Origin: Salicibibacter cibarius | GTDB lineage: Bacteria; Bacillota; Bacilli; Bacillales; Marinococcaceae | NCBI RefSeq assembly: GCF_016495725.1 | Contig: NZ_CP054705.1 | Span: 4,030,001 to 4,094,000 of the forward strand | DNA: 64,000 nt | Direction: 5' to 3' | Shown here: in pieces, positions 22,088-40,121 of the stretch | How positions within the stretch are numbered: the stretch's first letter is position 1 | Layout: each line of letters opens with the position of its first letter | Program-made: the position numbers and the translations under genes | The notes under the pieces: model-generated | What the model saw: only the letters and a program-made list of their open reading frames with translations | Databases searched by the model: none | What the model was told of the DNA's origin: nothing

Positions 22088-23578
22088 TTAAGATTTTTTC
22101 TTGCTTATCAACTGTTTAACAATTGGATAAAGTAAAAACAGCACCGCCGCGATCATAATGATGAGTGATGTTGGCCGGGCGATGAATATAGAGAAATCAC
22201 CGTGTGACATGATTAACGCTTGTCTAAAAGAATCTTCAGCGAGCGGGCCAAGGATTAAAGCCAGTATAAATGGAGCTGTTGGATAATCTAATTTTTTAAA
22301 GAAAAACCCTAATATACCAAAAGCAATGGCGACCCACACATTAAACACTGTATAAGCAAGGCTGAACGCACCAATAACACAAATGAAAACTACAATGCCA
22401 TTTAAATACCACTGGCCATAGTACATCATTTTAATGAATGATGGCACTAAAAAGATATTAGCGAACAACAGCAAGATGTTAGCAATAAACAAACCGACAA
22501 TAATGGTCCATACCACATCAGGTGATGTATCGAAAATACGGGGGCCAGGTTGAAGTCCGTAAATTATGAGCACACCAAGTAATATAGCTGTTGTTGCACT
22601 CCCTGGTATCCCTAAAGCGAAAGTAGGAATAAGTGAACCGCCTACGGATGCATTGTTAGCTGCTTCCGGCCCGGCCAATCCCTCCATTTTACCTTTCCCA
22701 AATTTATCCGGTTCTTTCGATTGCCCTTTTTCCACGGAATAAGATAAAAATGTTGAAAGAGATGCCCCCGCTCCAGGTAACACCCCGAAGAATGTTCCAA
22801 TGCCTGTACCACGTATCGTAGAAGCAAACGTCCCTTTGATGTCTCGCCAACTTGGGAATATATTCCCTAATTTCATATTGCCTTTTTTCATGTTTAATTT
22901 AAAAGAACGTTCAATATTGAATAGAATTTCACCAATTGCATAGAGTCCGATGATCACGGCAACAAAATCAAGACCTTCAATCAAATGGGGTGAATATTCA
23001 TAGCGGCCCGTTCCAGAAATAAAATCCAAACCAATGGTGGAAAGTAAAAAACCCAGGACTGCCATGATTATTGATTTTAAATAACCCCGATCAGTCAGCG
23101 ATGCAATCGCAGCGATCCCAAATAAAATAAGCGCAAAATACTCAGGAGCTGCAAAATACAAGGCCAAATCTGCAAGCAAAGGTGCGAATATAGCTAATAT
23201 AAGAAGAGAAATAACCCCAGCGATAAAAGAGGAGACGGCTGAAATGCCAAGCGCAATGCCTCCACGCCCTTGTGTCATCATAGGATAGCCATCAAACGTT
23301 GATACAATGGCCGCGGCATCACCTGGGATATTGATTAATATGGAAGTCACACGCCCGCCATACATGCTCCCGAGGTAAATACTGGCCAAAAACACAAGTG
23401 CCATTGAAGCTTCCATGCCAAGCGTAACCGGGAATAGCAACGCTAAACCGGCAGATGAACCCAAGCCTGGCAATATCCCAACCAATGTGCCGGCTATGGC
23501 CCCAAGTAGAATAATCAAAATCATCTCCATGCTGAAGACATACTCAAGACCTAATTGGACATTTTCTAGAAAATTCAT
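22088..23578 (-). CDS. tctA: Tripartite tricarboxylate transporter permease TctA
   Basis: A 496-residue large permease with about 12 membrane segments. The family signatures are VGILPGLGSSAGLALLFPVT (about residues 33-52) and FFGVLPGAGASLSTFLSYSV (about 264-283). With TctB and the lipoprotein TctC it forms a secondary active transporter for citrate-like or other carboxylates. It starts at ATG 23578 behind AGAGAGGTGAT, 17 bases after tctB. The operon also encodes an aldolase and a dehydrogenase, so the substrate is probably a hydroxylated dicarboxylate or tricarboxylate. Confidence 0.93.
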   Translation of the reverse strand: MNFLENVQLGLEYVFSMEMILIILLGAIAGTLVGILPGLGSSAGLALLFPVTLGMEASMALVFLASIYLGSMYGGRVTSILINIPGDAAAIVSTFDGYPMMTQGRGGIALGISAVSSFIAGVISLLILAIFAPLLADLALYFAAPEYFALILFGIAAIASLTDRGYLKSIIMAVLGFLLSTIGLDFISGTGRYEYSPHLIEGLDFVAVIIGLYAIGEILFNIERSFKLNMKKGNMKLGNIFPSWRDIKGTFASTIRGTGIGTFFGVLPGAGASLSTFLSYSVEKGQSKEPDKFGKGKMEGLAGPEAANNASVGGSLIPTFALGIPGSATTAILLGVLIIYGLQPGPRIFDTSPDVVWTIIVGLFIANILLLFANIFLVPSFIKMMYYGQWYLNGIVVFICVIGAFSLAYTVFNVWVAIAFGILGFFFKKLDYPTAPFILALILGPLAEDSFRQALIMSHGDFSIFIARPTSLIIMIAAVLFLLYPIVKQLISKKKS

Positions 23579-23595
23579 GCTGCATCACCTCTCTG

Positions 23596-24057
23596 TTAGA
23601 AGAAAAATAAACCTGTAGGCGTTGGAATATCCAGCCAAACATTGAAAACGACAATCACAAATACCATGCTTCCTAAGGAAACACCGACACTCGACACCCA
23701 GGAATATTTTTCAATGAATTTAAATGTAAAGAAGCTGAAAAGCGTTAAAACCAAAATCAACCCCAACACATCGACCAAAGTTATTGAAATAATCAAAGCT
23801 AGTAAAAAAACAGAAGCCTGTTTAAGTCCTTTCTTTGACTTAAAAAAAGATTGACCTTCGTTATGATCTTCCTTTTTTACAGTATGCGAAAGGATTAAAG
23901 TTGTCGCTAATAGAATCAAAATGATGCTTAGCCATACTGGAGCAAAGCCGGGACCTGGCCCAAAATCAGAACTATATTCAAAACCTAGGGCTTCTACCAA
24001 CATAAAGATGGAAAATAACAGGAGCATAAACGCAAATATAATTTCTGCTTTTTTCAT
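23596..24057 (-). CDS. tctB: Tripartite tricarboxylate transporter small permease TctB
   Basis: A 153-residue membrane protein with four hydrophobic segments. The region FGPGPGFAPVWLSIILI (about residues 32-48) is the TctB hallmark after helix 1. It pairs with TctA in the membrane. It starts at ATG 24057 behind GGGGGTTA and lies between tctA and tctC with short gaps of 17 and 20 bases, so the three are cotranscribed. The sequence in the second half is typical for the family. Confidence 0.9.
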   Translation of the reverse strand: MKKAEIIFAFMLLLFSIFMLVEALGFEYSSDFGPGPGFAPVWLSIILILLATTLILSHTVKKEDHNEGQSFFKSKKGLKQASVFLLALIISITLVDVLGLILVLTLFSFFTFKFIEKYSWVSSVGVSLGSMVFVIVVFNVWLDIPTPTGLFFF

Positions 24058-24077
24058 TAAAAATAACCCCCGGTAAA

Positions 24078-25064
24078 TTATTCGATGATGTCTGCTTCTC
24101 GTAAGTTTTCTTCAAACACTTCATTAAAGTCATGCATGTATTCTTCAAGCTCATCGCCAGCTAAAAAATCTGGCTCGAGCATTTGGGGTTCCTGATATTC
24201 CTCAATCCAGCGTTCATTTTGTGATAACTCTTCAAAAGCATTACTCCAATATTCTTGGTCTTCCTCAGACATATCAGGAGGGCCATAAACAACTCTATAG
24301 AGAGACCAGGTAAGTTCTTCGTAACCCAGCTCCTTCGCCGTAGGAACATCAGGCAGTGCCTCGGACCGTTCTTCTGAAGTTACAGCTATTGGGGTGACGT
24401 CACCACTTTCTATATACTCCATCGCTGATCCAATCTGTTGTGCGCTTGCGTCAATATGTCCTCCCAATAGACCGGTAAAAGCCTCACCAGCACTTTGATA
24501 AGGGAGATAGGTCGCTTCCTGACCAATAGCATCATCGAGTAACATGGCTACCATATGGTCAGATGTACCAACACCGTAACTGCCAAAAATGAGATCCTCT
24601 TCCTCAGCCGCTTCTACGTATTCGTTAAATGTCTCAATTTCGCTGTCAGCAGGTACGACAATAACATAAGACTGTTCACCAAGAAGAGCAATAGGACTGA
24701 AATCTTCATAATTAAATGCATAATCAGATTGTAGAGGCGCGGTTAAAAAAGTAGAATTAGCCAGGATCAAATGATCACCTGATCCCCTTTGGTTATAGAG
24801 ATGGGACATCGCTACCCCTCCATTTCCGCCCGGACGGTTATCAACATTAATGAAATCATCTACAATGTCCTCTTCCATCATGATTTCACTCATTAATCTC
24901 AAAATAGTATCTGACCCCCCGCCGGGTTCAGCTGCAGCAATAAATTCTGCGTGACCTTCAGGATTCGTTTGTGCTTCTGAAGTGTCACCGCTTTCACTAC
25001 ATGCAGTAAGCACCCCAATGAGTGCTATAGAAAGGGATAGTACTATTATCCACTTCAGTTTCAT
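24078..25064 (-). CDS. tctC: TctC/Bug-type solute-binding lipoprotein
   Basis: A 328-residue extracytoplasmic binding protein. The N-terminal signal ends in a lipobox, GVLTACSES (Cys about residue 22), so it is anchored to the outer face of the membrane. FIAAAEPGGGSDTILRLMSE is the Bug-family ligand loop, and HIDASAQQIGSAMEYIESGD is also typical. It is very acidic, with many Glu and Asp, as in halophile-exposed proteins. It is the first transporter gene after the dehydrogenase. The ligand is probably a carboxylate; which one cannot be read. Confidence 0.9.
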   Translation of the reverse strand: MKLKWIIVLSLSIALIGVLTACSESGDTSEAQTNPEGHAEFIAAAEPGGGSDTILRLMSEIMMEEDIVDDFINVDNRPGGNGGVAMSHLYNQRGSGDHLILANSTFLTAPLQSDYAFNYEDFSPIALLGEQSYVIVVPADSEIETFNEYVEAAEEEDLIFGSYGVGTSDHMVAMLLDDAIGQEATYLPYQSAGEAFTGLLGGHIDASAQQIGSAMEYIESGDVTPIAVTSEERSEALPDVPTAKELGYEELTWSLYRVVYGPPDMSEEDQEYWSNAFEELSQNERWIEEYQEPQMLEPDFLAGDELEEYMHDFNEVFEENLREADIIE

Positions 25065-26683: not shown

Positions 26684-27373
26684 TTACCCCTTATTTTCCA
26701 AGTTTGATTTCACATTTCCTAAATGATGTAATAGCGCAGACTTCGCTTGTTCAGGATCATGATTTTTAATGGCCTGATAAATAGCCTTATGTTCTTCGTA
26801 GATTTCATTTCTACGGTTAGGCAAATGACCTAATTTTTTAATGGTCTTTTTGATTAGATCCATCTGAAGATCTATAAAGCTGACAAGAACATAATTTTTG
26901 GTCGCTTTTGCGATGGTGAGGTGAAAGTTTCGATCCGAGCTGTTCTCTTTCATTTCAGTTGATTGATCTTTTCCCCACTCATCTAATGCCGCTTTGATAG
27001 CGGCAACATCCTCTTCTGTCGCAACCCTTGCAGCCCGCTCAACAATACCCGTTTCAAACACTTCTCTAGCTACAAGCAAATCCATAATGGTGGCGGTTTC
27101 AATTTCTTCAAAAAGTTGATTCCAATCTCTATAATCATCCAAACGATGACTAATATATCTCCCACCACCCGGTTTCGTCTCCACGATGCCTTCTCTTTCA
27201 AGAATGCGATAGGCTTCACGTAAGGTACTTCGGCTAATTCCAAAATCCTCAGCCAGTTTTCGCTCTGTAGGCAGCAAATCACCAGGAGATAGATTTCCTT
27301 CAAAAATCATATTTTCCAGTTGCTTCACCACTTCTTCATACACCCGATGATGCTTTACTTTTTGAACGTCCAT
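26684..27373 (-). CDS. GntR/FadR-family transcriptional regulator
   Basis: A 229-residue regulator. The N-terminal winged helix includes LLPTERKLAEDFGISRSTLR (about residues 37-56) and the wing IVETKPGGGRYIS. The C-terminal all-helical FCD ligand domain (about 85-215) has the metal-binding pattern RNFHLTIAKA and HKAIYQAIKNHD. It starts at ATG 27373 behind AAAAAGGGGTG and heads the operon with the aldolase, dehydrogenase and TctCBA. A repeat beside its promoter suggests autoregulation, relieved by the carboxylate substrate. Confidence 0.9.
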   Translation of the reverse strand: MDVQKVKHHRVYEEVVKQLENMIFEGNLSPGDLLPTERKLAEDFGISRSTLREAYRILEREGIVETKPGGGRYISHRLDDYRDWNQLFEEIETATIMDLLVAREVFETGIVERAARVATEEDVAAIKAALDEWGKDQSTEMKENSSDRNFHLTIAKATKNYVLVSFIDLQMDLIKKTIKKLGHLPNRRNEIYEEHKAIYQAIKNHDPEQAKSALLHHLGNVKSNLENKG

Positions 27374-27457: not shown

Positions 27458-27800
27458 GGATTTTTCAACAAGAATTATTACAAGCTTCATTGTGGTTCAT
27501 TGTAAAATCAAGAAGAAGAACCCATTTGGAAAAAAGATTGACCAAAAAGAATTCTTCTGCATTGTGGCGTTTCAATTTTTATAAAAAAGTTACAGTTACT
27601 CACGATTGTGGAATAACAATTCATAACGTTGATGTTTTTTCGATTTTGCTCTTGTTGACTTCTGTTGACCAGTTGTTGACCAAATTTAGCATATAGCAAC
27701 AAAAATCATCTAGTGAAAAAATGAAACAAATAAAAACCCTAATACATCAGATGTTCAGATCTAAATCCAATTGAGAATATTAGATATACAGAAATGGTAA

Positions 27801-27838
27801 GGATGAGGTCGCCGGTTCGAGTCCGGCAGGAAGCTCCA
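27801..27838 (+). pseudogene. 3' fragment of a tRNA gene ending in CCA
   Basis: The sequence contains a variable loop GAGGTC, a perfect T arm (GCCGG, loop TTCGAGT, CCGGC) and the acceptor strand AGGAAGCT ending in encoded CCA. The 5' half (D arm and anticodon arm) is absent. It is followed by a terminator. Such pieces are left when an integrative element uses a tRNA end as its attachment site. The amino acid identity cannot be assigned. Confidence 0.65.
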
Positions 27839-27852
27839 GTACAGAAACGATC

Positions 27853-27879
27853 AAACCCTTTTCATACAAGGGTTTTTAT
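27853..27879 (+). terminator. Terminator after the tRNA fragment
   Basis: AAACCCTT/AAGGGTTT with a 7-base loop and a short T-run, placed where a tRNA terminator would be. Confidence 0.7.
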
Positions 27880-27997
27880 TATGTCTTAAACTGGTACAGT
27901 TTAAGGCGTTTTCATTGATACAGCCAATTTGGGTCTTATTTTCTTTGTATGAACACTCCTACAAATGCCAGGTATTCCACGATCCATTTCAATACAT

Positions 27998-28022
27998 GTT
28001 TCGAGCCCAGCAGGAAGCACCA
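27998..28022 (+). repeat. Second, diverged tRNA 3'-end copy (att-like)
   Basis: GTTTCGAGCCCAGCAGGAAG followed by CACCA matches the T loop and acceptor end of the fragment at 27801 with a few changes. Two copies in the same orientation about 180 bases apart look like attachment-site repeats left after element loss. Confidence 0.5.
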
Positions 28023-28437
28023 TCTAAAATGATTCTCCACTAATAAGGGATTAAGCGTTTCCCCTTATTAAGCAAGATCAATCTGTTGACCATTTCAAAA
28101 GCGGAGTATGTGTGCCTGAAATTTACAATCGACACATCAACAGGACGCAAGAACACCGGGCCGTGTAAGCTCATTTTTTCAAACTAGGGTGTTCTTTATA
28201 CCGTGCTGGCAAGCTCGTCCACGTTGTTTTTGTACTCAAGTACAATGTCCAGGGAATCCTTAACGAATCATTAACAATGTATACGTTGCAACCTCCATAA
28301 TCCAGTTTTCTTGGATTCGGAATCACCCTCCATTAGAAGGCGCGTTTAATATAAACTTCCGCGAAGAGAACGTCCGAAATCCCCATTATGACACCACTAG
28401 AAGGAAGATCAACCCAATTAGAGGTGCCATGAGTGAG

Positions 28438-28755
28438 TCATGTACAAATGGTATTGCTTCCGGACATTGGAGGAGAATCTGTAGCTTCCATTATACTGAA
28501 TCCCGCATCAGCCATTGAATTTGTTGAAGGTAAAACAAGGTCTGCATGTAATACAGTACTGCCTCGCAGTTCATGAATCAGGAATTTTCTAAACTCGTCA
28601 TTATAGTTTTCTAAATACATTTTCTTATCAAACATCGTTTCCCCTGGTATATCAACTACTCCTCCCACCACAACTCTCGATAGTTCACCTTCAGCATGAG
28701 CATCAATCGTGTGTACTAATTTATTTACTTTTATCCCAATCCTCCTCCATGTCAT
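28438..28755 (-). pseudogene. Truncated proline racemase-family protein
   Basis: A 105-residue N-terminal piece of a proline racemase/hydroxyproline epimerase homologue. It keeps VHTIDAHAEGELSRVVVGGV and the first active-site region SPPMSGSNTICT, where SGSN replaces the usual CGH. It then meets a stop, while full-length members run to about 330 residues. No continuation was found downstream in any frame. It overlaps the 3' end of the NhaC gene by 4 bases. It is the third racemase-family sequence in the locus and is not functional. Confidence 0.8.
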
Positions 28756-30197
28756 GATGTAACATCTTTATCTGACTCCACTGGTATTGATTCGTTTGAT
28801 TGTTCACCAGTTCTCCATATAAACCAGCCTGTGAAACCGTAAATAAGCGATATAATTACTACGAGTATATTGAACCAGGCAAAAGATAAGTATGACATTG
28901 TACTAATCCCTAAAACTGCTGCCATATACACTCCACCGTCAGTCCAGGGAACGAGTGGTGTCATAACTGTTCCACCTGCTTCTGTATTACGGGCTAATAT
29001 ACGTTTATCCACATTCATATGCTCATAATTCTTTTCCGTAATTTTACTTCCGGTAATGCTTGATACATAAGCAGCTCCACCAAAGAAGTTACCAAAAAAA
29101 GCAGTTAACATTGTACTCAATGATAGTTTGCCAGTACTGTTTGCCCATGAAGCTAGTATATTGGTCAGTGTTTGGAGGATTCCCGTCTTTTCCATTAGAC
29201 CTCCTAGACCAAGAGCGAGAAGAATTAAGAGAATAACGTCAAGCATAAACTCAATGCCGCCCGTATTCAAAAGTTCATCAATGATTAAATAACCCGTTTC
29301 TACAGCATATCCTTCATAAAGGGCCATAAACGAGTCATATATGGATCTTCCTTGGAACAATACAGCCCAAATTGCTCCCAATAATGCGCCAAAAGCAATC
29401 GTTGGAATCGGAGGTTTCCTCATTGCTAAAAGGACAACAACAATTACTGCGGGAATCAACATGTACCACTGAATATTGAAAAATTCTTCGAGAGCGAACA
29501 TCGTCTCTTGAGCTTGACTCATATCAACAGTGTCCCCGACATAAAATATACCGACAATGATAAACAAAATACTAGCAATAACAAAAGCTGGCAGGCTAAC
29601 AAATAACATCGATCTAATGTGTTCCACGATGTCGACTTTTGTTAAAGATGAAACCAAGACTGTAGTATCTGACAACGGTGAGAGTTTGTCGCCTACATAA
29701 GCCCCTGAAATCACAGCCCCTGCAACTAATGGAAGAGGTATACCGAAACTTTGACCAACTGCCATCATAGCAACGCCTGCGGTACCTGCGGTTCCAAACG
29801 AAGTACCTGTACAAAGACTGGTAATAGCACATACAACCATTGCAGCAAACAGGAAAATTACCGGATGAATCATGCTTATTCCGTAATAAATTAGAGTTGG
29901 TACAACTCCTCCAAGAATCCATGTACCAATGATAGCCCCGACAGTAATTAAAATCAGCGTAGCTTCAAGTCCTCTGGAGATCCCTTCCTGAATCCCGTCT
30001 TGCATTGAATAATAATTATGTCCCAGATAAATCCCAAACAAAATAATCGCTGTCCAGGCTAAAATTAATGCCATTTGAATCGGGATGTCAAATACAGCTA
30101 ACGATAAGAACATAATAGCAATAAAAACTAATAAGATTCCCAACACTTCTAGACCATTCGGCAATCGAATCTTTCTTTCAGTTGAATCAGTTGTCAT
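28752..30197 (-). CDS. nhaC: NhaC-family Na+/H+ antiporter
   Basis: A 481-residue membrane protein with 11-12 hydrophobic segments. GAVISGAYVGDKLSPLSDTT (about residues 160-180) is the signature loop of NhaC antiporters, and GGTVMTPLVPWTDGG (about 395-410) is the second. NhaC-type proteins exchange sodium for protons; relatives next to catabolic genes swap substrate and product amino acids. ATG at 30197 follows AAAGGAGTCTC. It is the last intact gene of the sigma-54-dependent leftward operon, so it may serve hydroxyproline uptake. Confidence 0.85.
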   Translation of the reverse strand: MTTDSTERKIRLPNGLEVLGILLVFIAIMFLSLAVFDIPIQMALILAWTAIILFGIYLGHNYYSMQDGIQEGISRGLEATLILITVGAIIGTWILGGVVPTLIYYGISMIHPVIFLFAAMVVCAITSLCTGTSFGTAGTAGVAMMAVGQSFGIPLPLVAGAVISGAYVGDKLSPLSDTTVLVSSLTKVDIVEHIRSMLFVSLPAFVIASILFIIVGIFYVGDTVDMSQAQETMFALEEFFNIQWYMLIPAVIVVVLLAMRKPPIPTIAFGALLGAIWAVLFQGRSIYDSFMALYEGYAVETGYLIIDELLNTGGIEFMLDVILLILLALGLGGLMEKTGILQTLTNILASWANSTGKLSLSTMLTAFFGNFFGGAAYVSSITGSKITEKNYEHMNVDKRILARNTEAGGTVMTPLVPWTDGGVYMAAVLGISTMSYLSFAWFNILVVIISLIYGFTGWFIWRTGEQSNESIPVESDKDVTS

Positions 30198-30198
30198 T

Positions 30199-30570
30199 TC
30201 AGAGACTCCTTTTTGATATTTTAAACGAAAGGCAAATTATGTTGGAAAAGCTATGTCGGCATATACGCGATAATGTTTTATCAAATGTTTGAACACCTGC
30301 TTCTGCTACTTGTATGTCATTAAGAACACTACTGCCACACCAATAACACCTATTACCTTCCGTCTGTTTTAAGAGGGGTATCGCCACCAAAGATAACAAG
30401 AAGTCCTTGGTTTGTTGTGTTTGAGCCATAAGATCGGTATTAAGTACGGTTACTTCTGATAGATTAGCCGTAGGCATCTTTACAGCGATCGAAGTCCACG
30501 CTTTGTGTTGAGCGATACCAATGCTCGCTAACCATGCGTCATCCATCAATACTAATACTCGTGTTTTCAC
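30199..30570 (-). pseudogene. Decayed GlcG/HbpS-like (DUF336) protein gene
   Basis: The start reads MDDAWLASIGIAQHKAWTSI then AVKMPTANLSE, matching the GlcG/HbpS core (MDGAWLASIxIAxxKAxT, MPT). Thereafter the homology hops frames: NTTNQGLLVIFGGDTPLKTD in one frame, VIGVIGVA in another, and NDIQVAEAGVQTF in the first. The family ends VIGAIGVSGG...QDxxVAEAG, so all three pieces belong to one broken gene. Intact relatives bind haem or corrinoids or accompany oxidases. At least two frameshifts are needed. It sits between the racemase paralogue and nhaC. Confidence 0.75.
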
Positions 30571-30743: not shown

Positions 30744-31670
30744 TCATATCAAAAACCCTTCATATAGTGGATCATCCGGGTCTATAACAAAACGATTCAT
30801 ACTTAAAACCTTTGGTGACAATTCGATAGTCGCTTCCATCAAATTACCTTCTGTGCAATCAAGTGATACTGTTATTGATTCATTAGACAACCCTTGTGGA
30901 GACCATGAATAGGGGGTTTTTATCTTTGCATTCTTTGCTTGGATCGCTAATTGGGCTACTGCCCCTTCCAATGGAGAACGACTTATCGTTTGTGATTGCC
31001 GAATTGTAATTAGTCGATCTCCTTTCTCCCCTTTCTCCGAAGCAATGATGCCCTCCACATTCAGGTGGGATGGCCATTTTCTGTCTAACTCTGCAGCAAT
31101 TTGTTTCAGCTCATTCATCCCTGTCTCATCCAAAGGAAACGATAGGATATCAGTTGGAAGCACAGCATAGTTTCGTTGACCTATGGTGACAAGATTTGCT
31201 TCTGCATTATTTTGATAAACAGGCAAGAGGACCTTTTCTTCATGTGCAAAAACCTGAGTGTGGAGGACAACTTTAACACCTCTGTTAGCGGGTTGTGTAC
31301 TGGCTTTAATCAAGCCATCCGCTGTGTCAACAAAAATAGTACCCCAATTCATTTTTCCTGTTTCATGTAGATAAGAAATAGCGGCGGCTACTCCCGACAA
31401 GGAAAAACTTCGAAATCCACCCTGGTCCATAAAAAGAAGTCCTAAATTAGCTTCCGAATTGACTTGCTCGGTAATGATACAGCCGGTCATTGCCCGGTGC
31501 CCCCGCGGTTCACGTAAAAGTAGTTGTCTTTGCGGTTGAAAATGTTGTTCCGCAAAGGCTTGCTTATCCAGCATTGTCATTCCTATAACATTAATATCAG
31601 TCCAAATGCGTATGGCATTTCCCGCGACATGTACATCTGTAGTTGTTAGTACTTTACTTAAATCAAGCAT
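30744..31670 (-). CDS. Proline racemase-like protein lacking both catalytic cysteines
   Basis: A 308-residue member of the proline racemase fold. It keeps the conserved LLREPRGHRAMTGCIITE (about residues 51-68), DTADGLIKA and SRSPLEG. The first catalytic Cys is Ser90 (GGFRSFSLSG instead of PMCGH) and the second is Leu234 (SRSPLEG instead of RSPCGTG). The His of the CGH motif is also lost. Racemase, epimerase and 3-hydroxyproline dehydratase chemistry all need at least one of these residues. It lies 22 bases after the intact paralogue, with a good AAGGAG site, so it is translated. A partner or sensor role is possible. Confidence 0.85.
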   Translation of the reverse strand: MLDLSKVLTTTDVHVAGNAIRIWTDINVIGMTMLDKQAFAEQHFQPQRQLLLREPRGHRAMTGCIITEQVNSEANLGLLFMDQGGFRSFSLSGVAAAISYLHETGKMNWGTIFVDTADGLIKASTQPANRGVKVVLHTQVFAHEEKVLLPVYQNNAEANLVTIGQRNYAVLPTDILSFPLDETGMNELKQIAAELDRKWPSHLNVEGIIASEKGEKGDRLITIRQSQTISRSPLEGAVAQLAIQAKNAKIKTPYSWSPQGLSNESITVSLDCTEGNLMEATIELSPKVLSMNRFVIDPDDPLYEGFLI

Positions 31671-31692: not shown

Positions 31693-32718
31693 CTAACTAT
31701 GACCATTCATAGGAGGAACGAGCAAAAATCCTTTCCCTGCGAGATCTTCTTGATCATGAAAAAATTGATGCATACCCATGAGCCAAGCTGAACCTTTAAT
31801 CATTGTTGTTACAGATTCATGTGTATCAAAAGATTCAACCTCAATGATACGTGCTTCAAATAAAGATCCTACAATGCTTTCATGTATAAAAGCGTCATTT
31901 TTTTGCCATCTTTCATAATGATGAAGATTCGCAAGCTTGGCAGAAGTTCCTGTTCCACATGGAGAACGATCAATACCTCCGGGAGGAACAACGACCGTGT
32001 TTTTCACATGGGCTTTCGGATTTTCCGGCGTTGTAAAAAATTCAACATGGGTTACGCCCTGAATAAATGGTTTTTCAGGATGCTGGATAATGACGTTTTC
32101 GTTCACAGCATTACGAATCCTAATCCCTTTATCAACAATTTCCGGAGCATTTTCTGGCGTAAGACGTAACCCGAGAGAGTCAGCGTCTACAATAGCATAA
32201 AAGTTTCCCCCATATGCAATGTCACAGGAAATTGCACCAATATCAATCACATTGACATTAACTGTTTCCATATGAAATGCAGGCACATTTTTGAACTCAA
32301 CTGCCTTGGCTTTTCCGTTTTCAATTTCGACTTTTGCTCGAACAAGACCGGCCGGGGTATCCAAATTGATCCACGTTTCATGAGAAGTCGTGTGTACCCC
32401 TCCGCTTTCCACAAGAGCAGTGCAAACCCCTATAGTGTCATGGCCACACATTGGAAGATAACCGCCGGTCTCGATGAATATAACTCCAAAGTCCGCTTCT
32501 GGGTGACATGGTTCTACTAAAAGTGCGCCTGACATTACATCATGTCCACGCGGCTCATACATCAGTAACCGCCTGATCCAGTCATGTTCTTTTTGAACTT
32601 CCAACATTTTTTCATCCATGGTTTTTCCGTTTAATTTCGGAACCCCACTAAGAACTGTTCTGGTCGGATTTCCTCCTGTATGTGTATCTATAGTGAAAAA
32701 AACGCCATCTGCTTTCAT
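31693..32718 (-). CDS. Proline racemase family enzyme, probable 4-hydroxyproline 2-epimerase
   Basis: A 341-residue cytosolic enzyme. The two catalytic cysteines are present at Cys91 (LPMCGHDTIG) and Cys254 (DRSPCGTGTSA), on opposite faces of the substrate. The YEPRGHDVMSGAL segment is also conserved. The family interconverts L- and D-proline or trans-4-hydroxy-L-proline and cis-4-hydroxy-D-proline. The linked oxidase, deaminase and semialdehyde dehydrogenase make the hydroxyproline epimerase role likely. Its ATG overlaps the oxidase stop (TAATG), so translation is coupled. Confidence 0.88.
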   Translation of the reverse strand: MKADGVFFTIDTHTGGNPTRTVLSGVPKLNGKTMDEKMLEVQKEHDWIRRLLMYEPRGHDVMSGALLVEPCHPEADFGVIFIETGGYLPMCGHDTIGVCTALVESGGVHTTSHETWINLDTPAGLVRAKVEIENGKAKAVEFKNVPAFHMETVNVNVIDIGAISCDIAYGGNFYAIVDADSLGLRLTPENAPEIVDKGIRIRNAVNENVIIQHPEKPFIQGVTHVEFFTTPENPKAHVKNTVVVPPGGIDRSPCGTGTSAKLANLHHYERWQKNDAFIHESIVGSLFEARIIEVESFDTHESVTTMIKGSAWLMGMHQFFHDQEDLAGKGFLLVPPMNGHS

Positions 32719-33899
32719 TATTGCGTCACCTTTTTCTGAAATCGTTGTAGAGATAAAGGTTCCGGTGGCACAATCATCTCCTTTTTTTCGTTAATCATTT
32801 CTGAAACGAGCTTCCCTGTTACCGCTGCCAAACTGATGCCGTCGCCTTCATGACCAGCAGCGACATAGAAACCGGGAATATCATCCACTTTAGATACAAT
32901 CGGTAAATGATCTTCCGTCCATGGACGAAAGCCCGTGTATGCGCGAATCATCAGCATATCTTCTATTCCTGGATAAAAGCGGATCGCACGTCGTGCAATA
33001 GCTTGTACGACACGGTGATTGACAGCGCTATCAAAACCAATGAACTCTCGGCTGCTTCCGATGAGAAAATTTTGACTCTCCGTCGGTTCAAAGACAAGCG
33101 CTACACCGTATCGTTCTGTTTCTTCGTCAACTTGCCGTTCACCGCCAAATTTAGACATCAAGTATCCGAATTCCATCATTTTTCTTTCTCCAACAGGTTG
33201 GGAGCGTGAGGATACTAGGATATGTCCTTTCCGGGGATAAATAGGAATCTCCAAACCGACCATTGCTCCAATTTCTCGCGCCCATACACCAGCGGCATTT
33301 ACAACTTTTTGGGTATGTACTGCCCCATCCGTTGTATTTATATTAAAACATCCATCATTCAAATGTTGAATATCTGTGACCTCAGTATGCGTACGCAATT
33401 GACACCCAAAGTTCATTGCTTCTTCCATAAGAGCATAAGTGAGCAAATACGGGTTCACAGTTGCATCGGACGCACACTCAAGGCCTCCCGGCAGATGGTC
33501 AGAGAAGTAAGGAGATTCTTGGTGGATGTCCTCCCGATCAAGCATCCGAAAAGACAATCCGGCATCCTTTTGAAGTTGAACCCATTTTTCTGCAGCTTCC
33601 ATTTCCTGTTCTGATTCGCAAACAAGAATACTCCCCGGATTTCTGTACTCAAAAGGTAAGGTTAATTCTTCCGATAATTCTTTGACGAGGTTTTGACTTT
33701 GCAAGGACATTTGACTATCGAATCCCGGATCTTTATCAATAGCTAGAATATTGCCATCACATTTGGAAGATGTCCCACTTGCTACGTCTCCTCGATCAAT
33801 GACTGTAACCGTGTGCCCGGCTTTTCCAAGATAATAAGCAATCGCTGCGCCTATAATCCCTCCACCAATAATAGCAATGTCTGTATTCGTATTCGACAA
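32718..33899 (-). CDS. FAD-dependent oxidoreductase, probable D-hydroxyproline dehydrogenase beta subunit
   Basis: A 393-residue DAO-family flavoprotein. The FAD-binding start is DIAIIGGGIIGAAIAYYLG, and the C-terminal GFRPWTEDHLPIVSK plus GFYVAAGHEGDGISLA is the usual DAO end. It would oxidise cis-4-hydroxy-D-proline to a pyrroline. It starts with TTG at 33899, 8 bases after AAAGGAGG, and is the first gene of the leftward operon. The other likely subunits (2Fe-2S protein and second flavoprotein) lie in the divergent operon. A single-subunit amino acid oxidase is the alternative. Confidence 0.82.
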   Translation of the reverse strand: MSNTNTDIAIIGGGIIGAAIAYYLGKAGHTVTVIDRGDVASGTSSKCDGNILAIDKDPGFDSQMSLQSQNLVKELSEELTLPFEYRNPGSILVCESEQEMEAAEKWVQLQKDAGLSFRMLDREDIHQESPYFSDHLPGGLECASDATVNPYLLTYALMEEAMNFGCQLRTHTEVTDIQHLNDGCFNINTTDGAVHTQKVVNAAGVWAREIGAMVGLEIPIYPRKGHILVSSRSQPVGERKMMEFGYLMSKFGGERQVDEETERYGVALVFEPTESQNFLIGSSREFIGFDSAVNHRVVQAIARRAIRFYPGIEDMLMIRAYTGFRPWTEDHLPIVSKVDDIPGFYVAAGHEGDGISLAAVTGKLVSEMINEKKEMIVPPEPLSLQRFQKKVTQ

Positions 33900-33932: not shown

Positions 33933-33951
33933 AATGCAATGTTCATGCCAA
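33933..33951 (-). promoter_or_regulatory. Sigma-54 promoter of the leftward hydroxyproline operon
   Basis: On the minus strand TTGGCATGAACATTGCATT has GG and GC exactly 10 bases apart, the -24/-12 sigma-54 pattern. It lies 30-50 bases before the TTG start of the oxidase gene. The palindrome TGCCAATTGGCA (33946-33957) overlaps the -24 element. Confidence 0.85.
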
Positions 33952-34035: not shown

Positions 34036-34053
34036 TTAGACATGCATGTCTAA
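34036..34053 (+). promoter_or_regulatory. 18-bp perfect palindrome before the regulator gene
   Basis: TTAGACATGCATGTCTAA is a perfect palindrome located between the promoter and the ribosome site of the regulator gene. It is a likely operator for self-control or for another dimeric regulator. Confidence 0.5.
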
Positions 34054-34075
34054 AATATTTAACAGGTGGTGTATC

Positions 34076-35737
34076 ATGGAACAATTCCATTTGAATATAA
34101 ACCAATTTTTGAACACTGATATTGACTTACTCGAAGTTAATAATTGGGAAAAATTGCAAAAGATTAAAAATGGTTTTGTCAATTATAATAATAATTACTA
34201 TATGATTGCAGATGGCATCCTTAAGCAAGCGACGCTTATTGACAACTCTGCAGAATTTCATGTGGTGGTTCAGACCCTTTATGAATATTCGGTTGTACTT
34301 GTCGCTGAGCATGATGAGATCAAGGGATACTTATCGTTAAACGAAATGCTTCCGCAATTGGTACATCATTACCAAACATTACTTTCCTATTTTACGATTA
34401 TTACTAAAACAAGCGAGGCATCCGTGACGGTTATTAATGATAAGCGGGAGGTTATTCTCTGGACAGAAGGTGCGGAAAGAATCTTTTCTCTTCCTCATGA
34501 AAAAATTCAAGGTGATGACATCACAAATCATTTTGAGAAAGATAAGCTTGCCGTCACCGAGGCCTTGTATAGAGGCCAAGCATTGCAACAAAGTCATCAT
34601 CTCCCTCGGGACGATGTATTTGTTTTAATCAATACTTCACCGGTGTATGTCAACGGAAAAATTGTTGGCGCTGTCGCTTCTGAGACAGATATAACCAGTC
34701 AAGTTAAATTAAACCGAGAATTAATGCAGGCATCGGAACGCATCCACCGTTTAGAACAAAATTTACAAACGCTTCAACCAAGCGACGATCCTTTCCGAGA
34801 AATCAAGGGACAGAGTGCCCCTTTGGAACACACGAAGCGTATGATTGAAAAATTAAGACATACTGAAGTGTCGGTTTTGATTTTAGGCGAGAGTGGGGTT
34901 GGTAAAGAGCTTTTCGCAAAAGCGATACATGAAACGCGGGAAACTAAGGAGAGCCCTTTCGTTGCCATAAATTGTGGAGCTATTCCAAACGCTTTATTTG
35001 AAAGTGAATTGTTTGGTTATGAACGAGGGGCATTCTCAGGCGCTGACCAAAAAGGTAAAAATGGCAAGTTCGAATTAGCGCGAAATGGGACCCTGTTTTT
35101 AGATGAAATCGCTGAAATGCCTCTAGATATGCAAGTGAAATTATTACGCGTATTACAAGATAAAAAGTATTTTGCCGTCGGCGGTTCTAAAGAGATACAA
35201 GCAAATTTCCGAGTAATCGCAGCGACCAACCGCGATCTTGATCAATTCGTAGAAGAAGGCCTTTTTCGAGAAGACTTATATTATCGATTGAATGTTGTTA
35301 ATTTAACAATCCCACCGTTGCGTGAGCGAAAAGAAGATATTGTTCAACTCGTTCATCACTTTTTATATGAATTATCTGTACGCTACCATAAACCCATTCC
35401 AGAATTATCCCCTCAGTTCATGAATGCATTGCTTAAACATAATTGGAAAGGAAACGTAAGGGAATTGCGAAATGCTTTAGAACGACTTGTCGTTTTTTCT
35501 AATGATGGGGAAGCATTTATCGAAGATTTACCTTTCCTTGCCAAGCAAGTTCCAATGAACAACAATGAATCCAATGTACAACCATCAACATTGCAAGCTT
35601 CTATGGATAAGCACGAACGTCAACTATTAACCGAAGCATTAAAACATTCGGGGTCTAATAAACAACGCTGTGCTGCCGATCTCGGTATTAGTCGCGCAAC
35701 GCTCTACAACAAGTTGCAAAAACATAACCTTGAATAA
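34076..35737 (+). CDS. Sigma-54-dependent enhancer-binding regulator of the hydroxyproline operons
   Basis: A 553-residue activator. An N-terminal sensing region (1-110) is followed by a PAS domain (about 112-215, VTVINDKREVILWTEGAERI), then the AAA+ core: Walker A GESGVGKE (271-278), the sigma-54 contact loop GAFSGA (318-323, a Ser variant of GAFTGA) and Walker B TLFLDEIAEM. A Fis-type helix-turn-helix ends the protein (RCAADLGISRATLYNKLQKH). ATG 34076 is chosen for its AGGTGGTG site. Both flanking operons have sigma-54 promoters, so it very likely activates them in response to hydroxyproline or a pathway product. Confidence 0.93.
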   Translation: MEQFHLNINQFLNTDIDLLEVNNWEKLQKIKNGFVNYNNNYYMIADGILKQATLIDNSAEFHVVVQTLYEYSVVLVAEHDEIKGYLSLNEMLPQLVHHYQTLLSYFTIITKTSEASVTVINDKREVILWTEGAERIFSLPHEKIQGDDITNHFEKDKLAVTEALYRGQALQQSHHLPRDDVFVLINTSPVYVNGKIVGAVASETDITSQVKLNRELMQASERIHRLEQNLQTLQPSDDPFREIKGQSAPLEHTKRMIEKLRHTEVSVLILGESGVGKELFAKAIHETRETKESPFVAINCGAIPNALFESELFGYERGAFSGADQKGKNGKFELARNGTLFLDEIAEMPLDMQVKLLRVLQDKKYFAVGGSKEIQANFRVIAATNRDLDQFVEEGLFREDLYYRLNVVNLTIPPLRERKEDIVQLVHHFLYELSVRYHKPIPELSPQFMNALLKHNWKGNVRELRNALERLVVFSNDGEAFIEDLPFLAKQVPMNNNESNVQPSTLQASMDKHERQLLTEALKHSGSNKQRCAADLGISRATLYNKLQKHNLE

Positions 35738-35740
35738 ACG

Positions 35741-35759
35741 TTGGCATCTTTTTTGCATG
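35741..35759 (+). promoter_or_regulatory. Sigma-54 promoter of the rightward hydroxyproline operon
   Basis: TTGGCATCTTTTTTGCATG has GG and GC separated by exactly 10 bases, 24 bases before the ATG of the BFD-like gene and directly after the regulator stop. It shares TTGGCAT and TTGCAT with the leftward promoter. Confidence 0.88.
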
Positions 35760-35782: not shown

Positions 35783-36052
35783 ATGTCTACTTTAATAGTC
35801 TGTCGTTGTGAAGAAGTGAGTCTGGAGACTTTACAAAAAACCGCATATCAATATAATTGCTCTTCCAGAGAATTAAAGCTAAGGACACGAGCAGGGATGG
35901 GTATTTGTGGCGGAAGAAGTTGTAGAATGATGATTGAGCAAATCGCCGGCTCGGGCAATGATGGAAAAATTTACGGAACTGTTCCTTTAAAATATCAACC
36001 TCCTGTCCGCCCTGTTCCCTTTGGGGTATGGGGAGGGTTAAGCGATGAATAA
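35783..36052 (+). CDS. BFD-like [2Fe-2S] protein
   Basis: An 89-residue iron-sulfur protein. The four ligand cysteines are in IVCRCEEVS (Cys7 and Cys9) and GICGGRSCRMM (C-x4-C spacing), the bacterioferritin-associated ferredoxin fold. In hydroxyproline and opine oxidases this domain is fused to the large flavoprotein subunit or occurs as a separate gene. Here it is the first gene after the sigma-54 promoter, with an AGGAGG site. Its stop overlaps the next start by 8 bases. It should pass electrons within the dehydrogenase complex. Confidence 0.85.
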   Translation: MSTLIVCRCEEVSLETLQKTAYQYNCSSRELKLRTRAGMGICGGRSCRMMIEQIAGSGNDGKIYGTVPLKYQPPVRPVPFGVWGGLSDE

Positions 36053-36383
36053 ACGTATCCATACCCATCCGGTTCTCGACGATTTACCTCTAAAAGGGGA
36101 AATTACGTTTTCTTTTAACGGGGAAACATTATCGGCACATAAAGGAGATACGATCGCTACTGCTTTACTTGCCAATCAAATACGCACTTTACGTTATCAT
36201 GAAGAGAGCGGAAGCCCTCGGGGTATATATTGCAATATAGGGCACTGTTTTGAATGTAGGGTTACGGTTAATGACTATCCTGGAGTAAGGGCATGTTTGA
36301 CATTAATTGAAGAAGATATGGTGATAACCAGCGGAGAGAAACTCTCGCAACCATTAAAACAAGGAGGTGAAAAGCATGCTTGA
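36045..36383 (+). CDS. 2Fe-2S ferredoxin-type subunit (gamma-like) of the dehydrogenase
   Basis: A 112-residue small iron-sulfur subunit of the Fer2_4 type. ITFSFNGETLSAHKGDTIAT is the ubiquitin-like start, and the cluster ligands appear in IYCNIGHCFECRVTV plus the later RACLT. Such proteins are the gamma subunits of D-hydroxyproline dehydrogenase, opine oxidase and HcnA-like complexes. The gene overlaps both neighbours (8 bases each), which implies coupled translation and complex formation with the flavoproteins. Confidence 0.88.
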   Translation: MNKRIHTHPVLDDLPLKGEITFSFNGETLSAHKGDTIATALLANQIRTLRYHEESGSPRGIYCNIGHCFECRVTVNDYPGVRACLTLIEEDMVITSGEKLSQPLKQGGEKHA

Positions 36384-38633: not shown

Positions 38634-40121
38634 ATGGAAACTAAAGATGTTGTTTTAAAACCTAGAGTTCAAGAGTTTTTGCAAGGCGTTAAAGGCTTGT
38701 ATATTGACGGTAAATACGTTCAATCGATCCATAACAGCAAGTTTAACGTGTTAAATCCCGCTACCGAAGAAGTCATCTCAGAAGTGAGCGAAGCACAAAA
38801 GGATGATATTGATAAAGCTGTGGCAGCTGCCAAAGAAGCTTTTAATGAAGGTGAATGGACTAATCTCGAAGCTACAGAAAGATCACGTTTGATTTATAAA
38901 TTTGCTGACTTATTGGAAGAACACCGGGAAGAAATCGCGCAGTTAGAATCACTTGATAATGGTAAACCTTATCAACTTGCTCTGGAAGATGATGTGGATG
39001 GAACCGTTGAGCACTTCCGTTATTATGCAGGATGGGCAACGAAAATAACAGGTAAAACAGTGAATGTTTCCCCAGATTATTTAAATTATATTGTGCATGA
39101 ACCAGTAGGTGTTGTTGGACAGATAATACCATGGAATTTTCCATTAGCAATGGCGGGATGGAAACTGGGATCAGCACTGGCTGTTGGTTGTACAGTAGTG
39201 ATAAAACCGGCACCCGAAACCCCTCTTTCTCTATTATACGTTGCTCAATTGTTCAACGAAGCTGGCTTTCCGAACGGTGTTATTAATATTGTACCAGGTG
39301 CTGGCGATGTCGCAGGTGAAGCAATAATCACACATGAAGATGTTGAGAAGGTAGCTTTCACAGGATCAACTTCAGTCGGAAAAAATGTTATGAAAAAAGC
39401 GGCTGATGATATTAAAGGTATCACTTTAGAACTCGGCGGAAAATCTCCAAGTATTATTTTTGAAGATGCAAAGCTTGATGAGGCTATTGAAGGCGCATTC
39501 AATGGTACTATGTACAATCATGGACAAAATTGCAGTGCATGTACTCGAGTATATGTGCAACGTAACCTTTATGATGAGGTAGTTGAAGAACTGGCAAAGC
39601 GCGCTAAAGCCATGAAATTAGGTCCGGGTATGGATGAAGATATAGAAATGGGCCCACTTATTTCAGCCAAACAGCAACAAAGAGTCCTCAATTATATTGA
39701 GAAAGGTAAAGAGGAAGGTGCTCGTTTGATTGCTGGCGGTCAAAAAGCTTTTGATAAAGGCTATTTTGTAGAACCCACAGTCTTCGCTGATGTCGACGAT
39801 GATATGACGATTGCCAGAGAAGAAATTTTTGGGCCGGTCATTGCAGTCTTTCCATTTGATTCAGAAGAAGAAGTTATCAAACGGGCCAATGACAGCGAAT
39901 ATGGATTGGCTGCCAGTGTTTGGACCGAGAATATTCGAAAGGGACACCGAGTTTCTGGAAAACTTCAAGCTGGTACTGTTTGGGTAAACGACTTTGGACT
40001 TGAATTGGAAACAATGCCGTTTGGCGGATATAAAAAATCAGGCATTGGACGTGAAATGGGCGGGGAATATGGTTTGGCCAATTATACAGAAGTTAAGAGT
40101 GTAATGGTTAGAGTCAATTGA
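38634..40121 (+). CDS. Aldehyde dehydrogenase, probable 2-oxoglutarate semialdehyde dehydrogenase
   Basis: A 495-residue NAD(P)-dependent dehydrogenase of normal length. The cofactor region includes IIPWNFPLAMAGWKLG and FTGSTSVGK. Catalytic residues are Glu266 (LELGGKSP) and Cys300 (HGQNCSACTR). As last gene of the rightward operon it should oxidise 2-oxoglutarate semialdehyde to 2-oxoglutarate, feeding the citric acid cycle. AAGGAGG is 11 bases before the ATG. The sequence also resembles betaine-aldehyde and phenylacetaldehyde dehydrogenases, so the substrate rests on context. A strong terminator follows. Confidence 0.88.
   Translation: METKDVVLKPRVQEFLQGVKGLYIDGKYVQSIHNSKFNVLNPATEEVISEVSEAQKDDIDKAVAAAKEAFNEGEWTNLEATERSRLIYKFADLLEEHREEIAQLESLDNGKPYQLALEDDVDGTVEHFRYYAGWATKITGKTVNVSPDYLNYIVHEPVGVVGQIIPWNFPLAMAGWKLGSALAVGCTVVIKPAPETPLSLLYVAQLFNEAGFPNGVINIVPGAGDVAGEAIITHEDVEKVAFTGSTSVGKNVMKKAADDIKGITLELGGKSPSIIFEDAKLDEAIEGAFNGTMYNHGQNCSACTRVYVQRNLYDEVVEELAKRAKAMKLGPGMDEDIEMGPLISAKQQQRVLNYIEKGKEEGARLIAGGQKAFDKGYFVEPTVFADVDDDMTIAREEIFGPVIAVFPFDSEEEVIKRANDSEYGLAASVWTENIRKGHRVSGKLQAGTVWVNDFGLELETMPFGGYKKSGIGREMGGEYGLANYTEVKSVMVRVN

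What the first reader, a model, noticed from the sequence alone, without database searches (positions are those of the whole stretch)
30744..31670. Racemase-fold protein with both catalytic cysteines replaced
Alignment by eye with the adjacent active paralogue puts Ser90 and Leu234 where Cys91 and Cys254 belong; the CGH histidine is also lost. The frame is intact, has a good ribosome site and lies in the same operon. Even the dehydratase branch of the family keeps one catalytic Cys or a Cys/Thr pair. It could be a pseudoenzyme that partners with or regulates the epimerase, or an enzyme with new chemistry.
Basis: partly seen in the sequence, partly recalled or inferred. Interest (0 to 1): 0.6.

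Follow-up and report, generated by a model that had tools for sequence, protein, structure and literature searches.

The report
Dead racemase paired with active epimerase
Next to a normal hydroxyproline-converting enzyme, many Bacillus-like bacteria carry a second protein of the same kind that has lost its catalytic residues but is kept by evolution, probably as a non-catalytic partner of the working enzyme.

Summary
The minus-strand ORF 30744-31670 (308 aa) has a proline-racemase fold (predicted), with Ser90 and Leu234 where its neighbour, a 4-hydroxyproline-epimerase-type protein (HypE), has Cys91 and Cys254; the CGH His and DRSP Asp are lost too. It is not a lone decaying gene. I collected 46 distinct proteins lacking both cysteines from Bacilli (this one included); all 46 lie directly downstream of an intact HypE, 25 overlapping it by 4 nt, in a conserved hydroxyproline operon. 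The window gene and its orthologue give dN/dS 0.25 (bootstrap 0.18-0.34). The dead Cys1 position carries ten different residues, which speaks against new chemistry there. Cys64 links the family to another, dehydratase-like racemase branch, not to its neighbour. Other lineages show graded erosion at the same place, from Cys/Cys to a 257-aa remnant. Best reading: a dedicated pseudoenzyme subunit of a heteromeric epimerase. An indirect hint is that cluster-4 epimerases (Bacillus cereus type) could not be purified because of insolubility (eLife 2014). Binding is not shown, twelve related HypEs have no dead partner, and a single origin of the family is likely but not proven. Eight searches of open-access papers found no description of it.

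The parts
30744..31670 (-). Tandem pseudo-racemase, 308 aa (P0001): proline racemase fold, Ser90/Ser92/Ser230/Leu234 at the catalytic and substrate-binding positions
   Evidence: model pLDDT 87.9, pTM 0.87; best PDB matches 4-hydroxyproline epimerases
31693..32718 (-). Intact 4-hydroxyproline-epimerase-type racemase, 341 aa (P0002), Cys91/His93/Asp250/Cys254
   Evidence: NCBIfam best 362 bits (proline racemase, cut-off 556) and 343 bits (4-hydroxyproline epimerase, cut-off 376), both below cut-off, so the substrate is inferred from the operon
32718..33899 (-). FAD-dependent DAO-family oxidoreductase, first gene of the operon (SoxB-like; probable hydroxyproline dehydrogenase subunit)
   Evidence: PF01266 E 6.4e-76; same position in 28 of 30 named loci
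33935..33950 (-). Sigma-54-type -24/-12 site TGGCATGAACATTGCA upstream of the operon
   Evidence: 1 mismatch; 2 hits in the window against 1.23 expected, so only the position is informative
34046..35737 (+). Divergent sigma-54 activator (PrdR/SoxR-like)
   Evidence: PF00158; NF041552 PrdR 510.7 bits, below its cut-off of 795
35742..35757 (+). Second sigma-54-type site TGGCATCTTTTTTGCA between the activator and the 2Fe-2S gene
   Evidence: 1 mismatch
36045..36383 (+). 2Fe-2S protein
   Evidence: PF13510
36367..37587 (+). Pyridine nucleotide-disulphide-type FAD oxidoreductase
   Evidence: PF07992
37675..38571 (+). DHDPS-family protein, probable hydroxyproline-pathway dehydratase/deaminase (name by reading and by homologues, not scanned against a library)
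   Evidence: ORF; a homologue lies downstream of the pair, in some behind NhaC, in 25 of 30 named loci
38634..40121 (+). Aldehyde dehydrogenase, probable alpha-ketoglutarate semialdehyde dehydrogenase (name by reading and by homologues, not scanned against a library)
   Evidence: ORF; homologues in the same cluster in many named loci
28752..30197 (-). NhaC-type transporter downstream of the pair
   Evidence: TIGR00931 507.5 bits, cut-off 370

Best explanation
The gene makes a catalytically dead racemase-fold subunit that is co-expressed with, and assembles with, the 4-hydroxyproline epimerase encoded just before it, giving a hetero-oligomer in which only the HypE chain works. Shown here: loss of the catalytic residues, fold retention (predicted), purifying selection, tandem linkage and operon context. 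Inferred: that it binds HypE and helps its folding, solubility or control. It probably began as an active racemase or dehydratase gene placed behind HypE, which lost its chemistry and kept a structural role.
For: 46 of 46 distinct pseudo-racemases lie directly behind an intact HypE on the same strand, 25 of 46 with a 4-nt overlap by my choice of start codon (adjacency was not used to select them). The operon recurs in the 30 named loci that carry the pair: DAO directly upstream in 28, divergent activator in 27, DHDPS downstream in 25. It matches the Bt HD73 sox locus, where soxE (proline racemase) is followed by the 'hypothetical' soxF and the genes are co-transcribed (PMC4941409, passages). 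dN/dS (NG86) is 0.246 (bootstrap 0.177-0.343) for the window gene against 0.115 for its HypE; in four other informative pairs 0.16-0.31 against 0.05-0.14. Pseudo and HypE distances correlate at r 0.93, largest of 999 permutations 0.35, and the main clades match. Catalytic positions are unconstrained: ten residues at Cys1, His kept in 1 of 46, Asp in 6 of 46. Models keep the racemase fold at 308 and 254 aa. Zhao et al. 2014 could not purify cluster-4 (teal) proteins because of insolubility, although B. cereus, of that cluster, grows on hydroxyproline and induces the gene (PMC4113996, section 9). T. cruzi proline racemase is a homodimer with anticooperative binding (PMC6224121, passages).
Against: No direct evidence of binding; no complex could be modelled here. 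Twelve HypEs of the same branch have no dead partner behind them, including three Brevibacillus and four from the window's own family, so HypE can do without it. No fused HypE-pseudo ORF: the longest of the 189 distinct hit ORFs is 385 aa. The link to the insoluble cluster-4 proteins is indirect: I could not read the B. cereus or Bt soxF sequence. Correlated distances are expected from any two linked genes. One origin of all pseudos is not proven: the tree needs two changes and P0001 stands apart on a long branch. The one residue that tracks pairing (Asn before EPRGH: 42 of 46 paired HypEs, 0 of 12 unpaired) is Tyr in the window's own HypE, is Asn in a 13th HypE whose downstream is cut off, and rests on 2-4 independent contrasts, sign test p 0.5-1.
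Confidence: 0.58

Rival explanations
1. It binds hydroxyproline or another enzyme of the pathway (the DAO/2Fe-2S/FAD dehydrogenase or the sigma-54 activator) and acts as sensor, scaffold or channelling protein, not as a HypE subunit.
For: Most pathway genes and the activator are in the same cluster. The gene is co-directional with the DAO subunit.
Against: It follows HypE specifically, often overlapping it. Ligand-binding Asp and His are mostly gone, so a preserved prolyl site is doubtful.
Confidence: 0.2
2. It is an enzyme with new chemistry using other residues, for example the conserved Cys64 with Asp12, His14 and Glu54.
For: Cys64 is kept in 45 of 46 members, and Asp12, His14, Arg21 and EPRG are invariant in the 40-row alignment. 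Ser90 is kept in the one close orthologue.
Against: Cys64 is equally kept in active relatives (44 of 46 STMCGHG-type racemases) and Glu54 in the three active classes, so they look inherited. The former catalytic positions vary freely. Ser90 lacks the Asn at +3 proposed for Ser-type members. Some members are cut to 254-257 aa, and the 257-aa one has lost Cys64 as well (read).
Confidence: 0.1
3. It is a decaying duplicate on its way to loss.
For: dN/dS is about twice that of HypE in the window pair. It evolves about 3.4 times faster than HypE. Several relatives lack it, and other racemase genes in this genome are broken (and the fragment at 28438-28755).
Against: dN/dS well under 1 in five of five informative pairs; open frames in all 46 although mutual identity falls to about 20% (40 rows); conserved motifs and position. 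The search favours intact frames, so broken copies may be under-counted.
Confidence: 0.06
4. The gene matters only for translation or mRNA of the operon (coupling), the protein being incidental.
For: Frequent 4-nt overlap with HypE (25 of 46).
Against: Protein-level purifying selection and fold retention; the next gene downstream differs among loci.
Confidence: 0.04

Closest known systems
4-hydroxyproline 2-epimerase (HypE / 4HypE, PF05544)
   Same: Fold: VIA-align Z 33.5 to 4jd7_D, 298 residues, rmsd 2.6; same operon and Pfam family
   Different: Both catalytic Cys, the CGH His and the DRSP Asp are replaced; score far under every NCBIfam equivalog cut-off it meets (best 83.6 against 556)
Cys/Cys 'STMCGHG' racemases of Bacilli and trans-3-hydroxy-L-proline dehydratases (NF045511 relatives; the four Bacilli proteins scanned score 327-411 bits, under the cut-off of 540)
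   Same: Shared signature Cys64 (44 of 46 against 1 of 59 in HypE); in the tree the pseudos attach nearer to them than to HypE; in genome G589 an intact Cys/Cys gene of this kind holds the pseudo's place behind HypE
   Different: Active residues intact in them, lost here
soxF of Bacillus thuringiensis HD73 (HD73_3144, 'hypothetical protein')
   Same: Same place, directly after the proline racemase soxE in a sigma-54/SoxR operon (PMC4941409, passages)
Pseudoenzyme subunits that support an active paralogue (for example plant Pdx1.2 or inactive ClpP paralogues; recalled, no call)
   Same: Dead paralogue kept beside its active relative
   Different: None that I know of concerns cofactor-independent racemases; partnership here is unproven

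Membership tests
Proline racemase superfamily (PF05544) | Sequence profile match over the full domain | tested here: met
   E 2.2e-21, 76.8 bits against cut-off 27, residues 12-306
Proline racemase superfamily (PF05544) | Two-domain racemase fold | tested here: met
   Predicted model pLDDT 87.9; the 22 top rows, Z 25.1-33.5, are proline racemases, hydroxyproline epimerases or dehydratases by title (one, 2azp, is titled PA1268 only), 278-305 residues aligned
Catalytic proline racemase / 4HypE | Catalytic Cys/Cys pair | tested here: not met
   Ser90 and Leu234
Catalytic proline racemase / 4HypE | His and Asp that hold the prolyl nitrogen (roles from PMC4113996) | tested here: not met
   Ser92 and Ser230
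Ser-type epimerase / dehydratase | Catalytic Ser with Asn at +3 | tested here: not met
   Ser90 with Gly93 (motif)
trans-3-hydroxy-L-proline dehydratase (NF045511) | NCBIfam equivalog cut-off | tested here: not met
   66.1 bits against 540
trans-3-hydroxy-L-proline dehydratase | Cys/Thr or Ser/Thr catalytic pair | tested here: not met
   Ser/Leu
Pseudoenzyme (descriptive class) | Catalytic residues lost while the gene is under purifying selection | tested here: met
   dN/dS 0.246, bootstrap 0.177-0.343; residues. Absence of activity itself was not testable
Pseudoenzyme subunit of an active paralogue | Genetic linkage with the active paralogue | tested here: met
   46 of 46
Pseudoenzyme subunit of an active paralogue | Physical complex and effect on the active enzyme | not testable with these tools
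   No complex prediction or wet-lab data available

The most novel reading that the evidence does not exclude
Many Bacilli make the first known heteromeric cofactor-independent amino-acid epimerase: a HypE plus dead-subunit complex. The dead subunit was recruited from an active dehydratase-like racemase and eroded step by step, in places perhaps independently, until only a folding or allosteric platform remains; this would be why cluster-4 Bacillus HypE is insoluble on its own.
Probability: 0.35. Interest if true: 0.75.

Novelty: new variant of a known kind. Interest (0 to 1): 0.6.

Why it matters
Proline racemases and hydroxyproline epimerases are treated as single-gene enzymes. A conserved dead second subunit would change how the Bacillus hydroxyproline (collagen-breakdown) pathway is reconstituted and annotated: in Priestia megaterium both genes of the pair are labelled 'proline racemase family protein'. 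It would offer a reason for a published purification failure. The graded series in living genomes (intact, half-lost, fully lost, truncated) is a natural record of an enzyme turning into a pseudoenzyme, and it can be tested directly in P. megaterium ATCC 14581.

Tried and rejected
Duplication of the neighbouring HypE as the origin: rejected as unlikely. The pseudo group shares Cys64 with the STMCGHG branch, not with HypE, and does not fall with HypE in the tree. The tree is a quick one with long branches (P0001 3.4 changes per column); the pseudos need two label changes, one origin not being ruled out, and the places of P0001 and of the four most diverged members (L106, L043, L009, L010) are unsure.

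Spread beyond Bacilli: of 299 genomes drawn from the phylum, 47 had a match. The 19 loci newly fetched there (L166-L184) were read; all 19 keep the first Cys and a Cys or Thr at the second place. The remaining matches of that call were not read, so this is no proof of absence.

Co-variation of HypE with pairing: Asn before EPRGH goes with pairing (42 of 46 against 0 of 12), but the window's own pair and three others have Tyr, a 13th HypE (L070, downstream cut off) has Asn, and with 2-4 independent contrasts the sign test has p 0.5-1. Kept only as a lead.

B. cereus soxF sequence: not obtained.

Rows dropped or set apart: identical or contained ORFs were merged (201 hits to 156; 239 to 189). 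Of 49 ORFs without the first Cys, three that keep the second Cys were left out of the 46, so 'both lost' is partly by definition: L022 (this genome, elsewhere), L135 (Leucobacter, MSGSNT type) and L164 (G490, Glu at Cys1, lying behind the FAD oxidoreductase gene and not behind HypE). The active classes were named by their CGH motif, so their keeping Cys1 and His is by definition too. Later finds are not in the 46: L185 (G576, 257 aa), the Ser/Gly genes of G435 and G554, and G376. The DAO dN/dS control failed: misframed and not found; it is not used. The L040/L041 pair had no synonymous change. In one search some HypE stretches began a few codons before the start, a trivial addition; the L067/L082 pair has dS above 1.

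Two sigma-54-type sites against 1.23 expected is no enrichment.

Literature: searches (open-access PMC only) listed no paper that I recognised as describing a dead proline-racemase partner. Only PMC4113996 (passages; sections 9 and 10), PMC4941409, PMC5445326 and PMC6224121 (passages) were opened; the other papers were seen as search listings only.

Full report
WHAT IS THERE. The ORF at 30744-31670 reads on the minus strand: 308 aa, ATG behind AAGGAG, 22 nt after the stop of the epimerase gene at 31693-32718. Pfam gives a full-length PF05544 match (E 2.2e-21; the neighbour 1e-113). Ser90, Ser92, Ser230 and Leu234 stand where the neighbour has Cys91, His93, Asp250 and Cys254.

IT IS A FAMILY. 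A search of 101 genomes gave an 81% orthologue, G006 (its contig length equals that of Natribacillus halophilus NZ_FNEN01000016.1), and diverged tandem genes of about 23-27% identity. A profile search of 397 genomes of the order, one scan of named genomes that kept the best 80 of 336 relatives, and 398 genomes of the class followed. In the order draw at least 16 of 397 genomes carry a pseudo-racemase; all 16 were read, the sixteenth (G376). Of the 80 named loci, 30 carry one. After merging duplicates, 46 distinct proteins, P0001 included, lack both cysteines. Adjacency was not part of the search, yet 46 of 46 follow an intact MCGHDT[IV]G epimerase on the same strand. By my choice of start codon 25 of 46 overlap it by exactly 4 nt, and the largest gaps are 198 and 203 nt. 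Named carriers include Priestia, Neobacillus, Cytobacillus, Mesobacillus, Siminovitchia, Virgibacillus, Lentibacillus, Oceanobacillus, Evansella and a Sporosarcina metagenome bin. In P. megaterium ATCC 14581 the pair is on plasmid pBMV_2, BG04_RS28450 and BG04_RS28455, both annotated 'proline racemase family protein'; the second is identical to the pseudo-racemase of G189.

WHAT IS KEPT AND WHAT IS LOST. In the 40-row alignment the invariant residues besides Met1 are D12, H14, G17, R21, E54-P-R-G57, C64, R231, S232, D300, P301, G305 and F306. The first Cys position holds H, Q, K, S, Y, L, A, M, N or T; the second G, L, S, F or N; His is kept in 1 of 46 and the DRSP Asp in 6 of 46. In the active classes (59 HypEs, 46 STMCGHG, 28 NMCGHG, named by their CGH motif) the DRSP Asp is kept in all and the second position is Cys or Thr in all. 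A position that takes ten residues is not a new catalytic residue. Ser90 of P0001 also lacks the Asn at +3 that Zhao et al. propose for all members with a catalytic Ser (PMC4113996, section 10).

SELECTION. For the window gene against the Natribacillus orthologue, dN/dS (NG86) is 0.246, bootstrap 0.177-0.343; for the HypE pair it is 0.115, bootstrap 0.066-0.186. Four other pairs give pseudo 0.313, 0.210, 0.184 and 0.157 against HypE 0.119, 0.102, 0.141 and 0.048; a fifth had no synonymous change. So selection is purifying but weaker than on HypE. Pseudo and HypE distances correlate (Mantel r 0.931; largest of 999 permutations 0.354), with the pseudo moving about 3.4 times faster. Linked genes would correlate anyway, so this shows joint inheritance, not contact.

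FOLD. AlphaFold2 on the 40-row alignment gives pLDDT 87.9 and pTM 0.87. Against solved structures the best are hydroxyproline epimerases (Foldseek E 1.1e-24, 4jci_B; VIA-align Z 33.5, rmsd 2.6, 298 residues, 4jd7_D; rows within 1 are tied). A 254-aa member also models well (pLDDT 87.5) and matches the same family. The short members thus keep the fold while losing loops.

ORIGIN. Cys64 is present in 45 of 46 pseudos and 44 of 46 STMCGHG racemases but in 1 of 59 HypEs and 1 of 28 NMCGHG proteins. In the tree the pseudos lie outside HypE, with the Bacilli STMCGHG genes between; 26 pseudos form one well-supported group, while P0001, a group of four and L004 stand apart, so a single origin is likely from Cys64 but not proven. 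The dead gene therefore looks recruited from another branch. Living intermediates fit: G589 has an intact Cys/Cys gene with a pseudo-like N-terminal motif (DAHVAGEPLR) directly behind HypE; G435 and G554 have Ser/Gly with His kept at that place, perhaps an independent case since they lack Cys64; G052 and G095 have Tyr/Gln/Ser; G576 has a 257-aa remnant that has lost RSP and Cys64. One half-lost gene, in G490, is in a hydroxyproline-type cluster but not behind HypE.

CONTEXT. The operon looks like a hydroxyproline pathway: DAO, HypE, pseudo, then (NhaC), DHDPS and aldehyde dehydrogenase, with a divergent sigma-54 activator, 2Fe-2S and FAD genes. Of the 30 named loci, 28 have DAO directly upstream, 27 the activator and 25 DHDPS downstream; some of the gaps are contig ends. 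In the window DHDPS and ALDH lie behind the FAD gene instead. In the window, -24/-12-type sites lie at 33935-33950 (-) and 35742-35757 (+). Two hits against 1.23 expected is no enrichment, but these correspond to the places of PsoxB and PsoxC, the sigma-54 promoters of Bt HD73. There the order is soxB, soxE (proline racemase), soxF (hypothetical), soxG (DHDPS), soxH (ALDH), soxI, co-transcribed (PMC4941409, passages). I predict that soxF belongs to this family.

FUNCTION. Zhao et al. could not purify cluster-4 proteins because of insolubility, though B. cereus ATCC 14579, of that cluster, grows on trans-4-hydroxy-L-proline and induces the gene (PMC4113996, section 9). If those proteins are of the paired kind, a missing partner would explain it; this step is inference. 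T. cruzi proline racemase is a homodimer with a site in each subunit and anticooperative binding (PMC6224121, passages), so a dead chain in place of one subunit is structurally plausible. Against an absolute need: twelve HypEs have no dead partner, among them four from the window's family and three Brevibacillus; one of the twelve (G589) has the intact Cys/Cys gene there. I put 0.58 on a HypE-binding dead subunit, 0.20 on another binding or scaffold role, 0.10 on new chemistry, and less on decay or mere coupling.

NOVELTY. Pseudoenzymes are a known kind; one in the cofactor-independent proline racemase family, fixed in tandem with HypE, was not found in eight searches of open-access papers. 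Subscription journals are not covered.

Noticed in passing
28438-28755 (-): Third racemase gene (Ser-type, MSGSNT) truncated after 105 aa; an intact homologue (350-codon frame, MSGSNT / SACGTAT) sits behind NhaC in Natribacillus halophilus (L189:901-1950, -). A pseudogene here.
   Followed up: partly
G000:C1:945827-946830 (outside the window): A further racemase gene of the same genome, apparently frameshifted: two overlapping partial matches in different frames.
   Followed up: no
30199-30570 (-): HbpS-like fragment between the pseudo-racemase and NhaC: only residues 5-42 match PF03928 (E 4.4e-6); looks like a remnant.
   Followed up: no
27743-28040: Stretch resembling the 3' half of a tRNA gene (impression from reading), though ARAGORN finds no tRNA in the window; may mark a mobile-element scar next to the truncated racemase.
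   Followed up: partly
L185:807-1832 (G576): The HypE paired with the most eroded pseudo reads PPRGH instead of the usual EPRGH.
   Followed up: no
22088-25064 and 26684-27373 (-): Genes resembling a tripartite tricarboxylate transporter (TctA, TctB, TctC) and, further upstream, a GntR-type regulator, by reading only.
   Followed up: no
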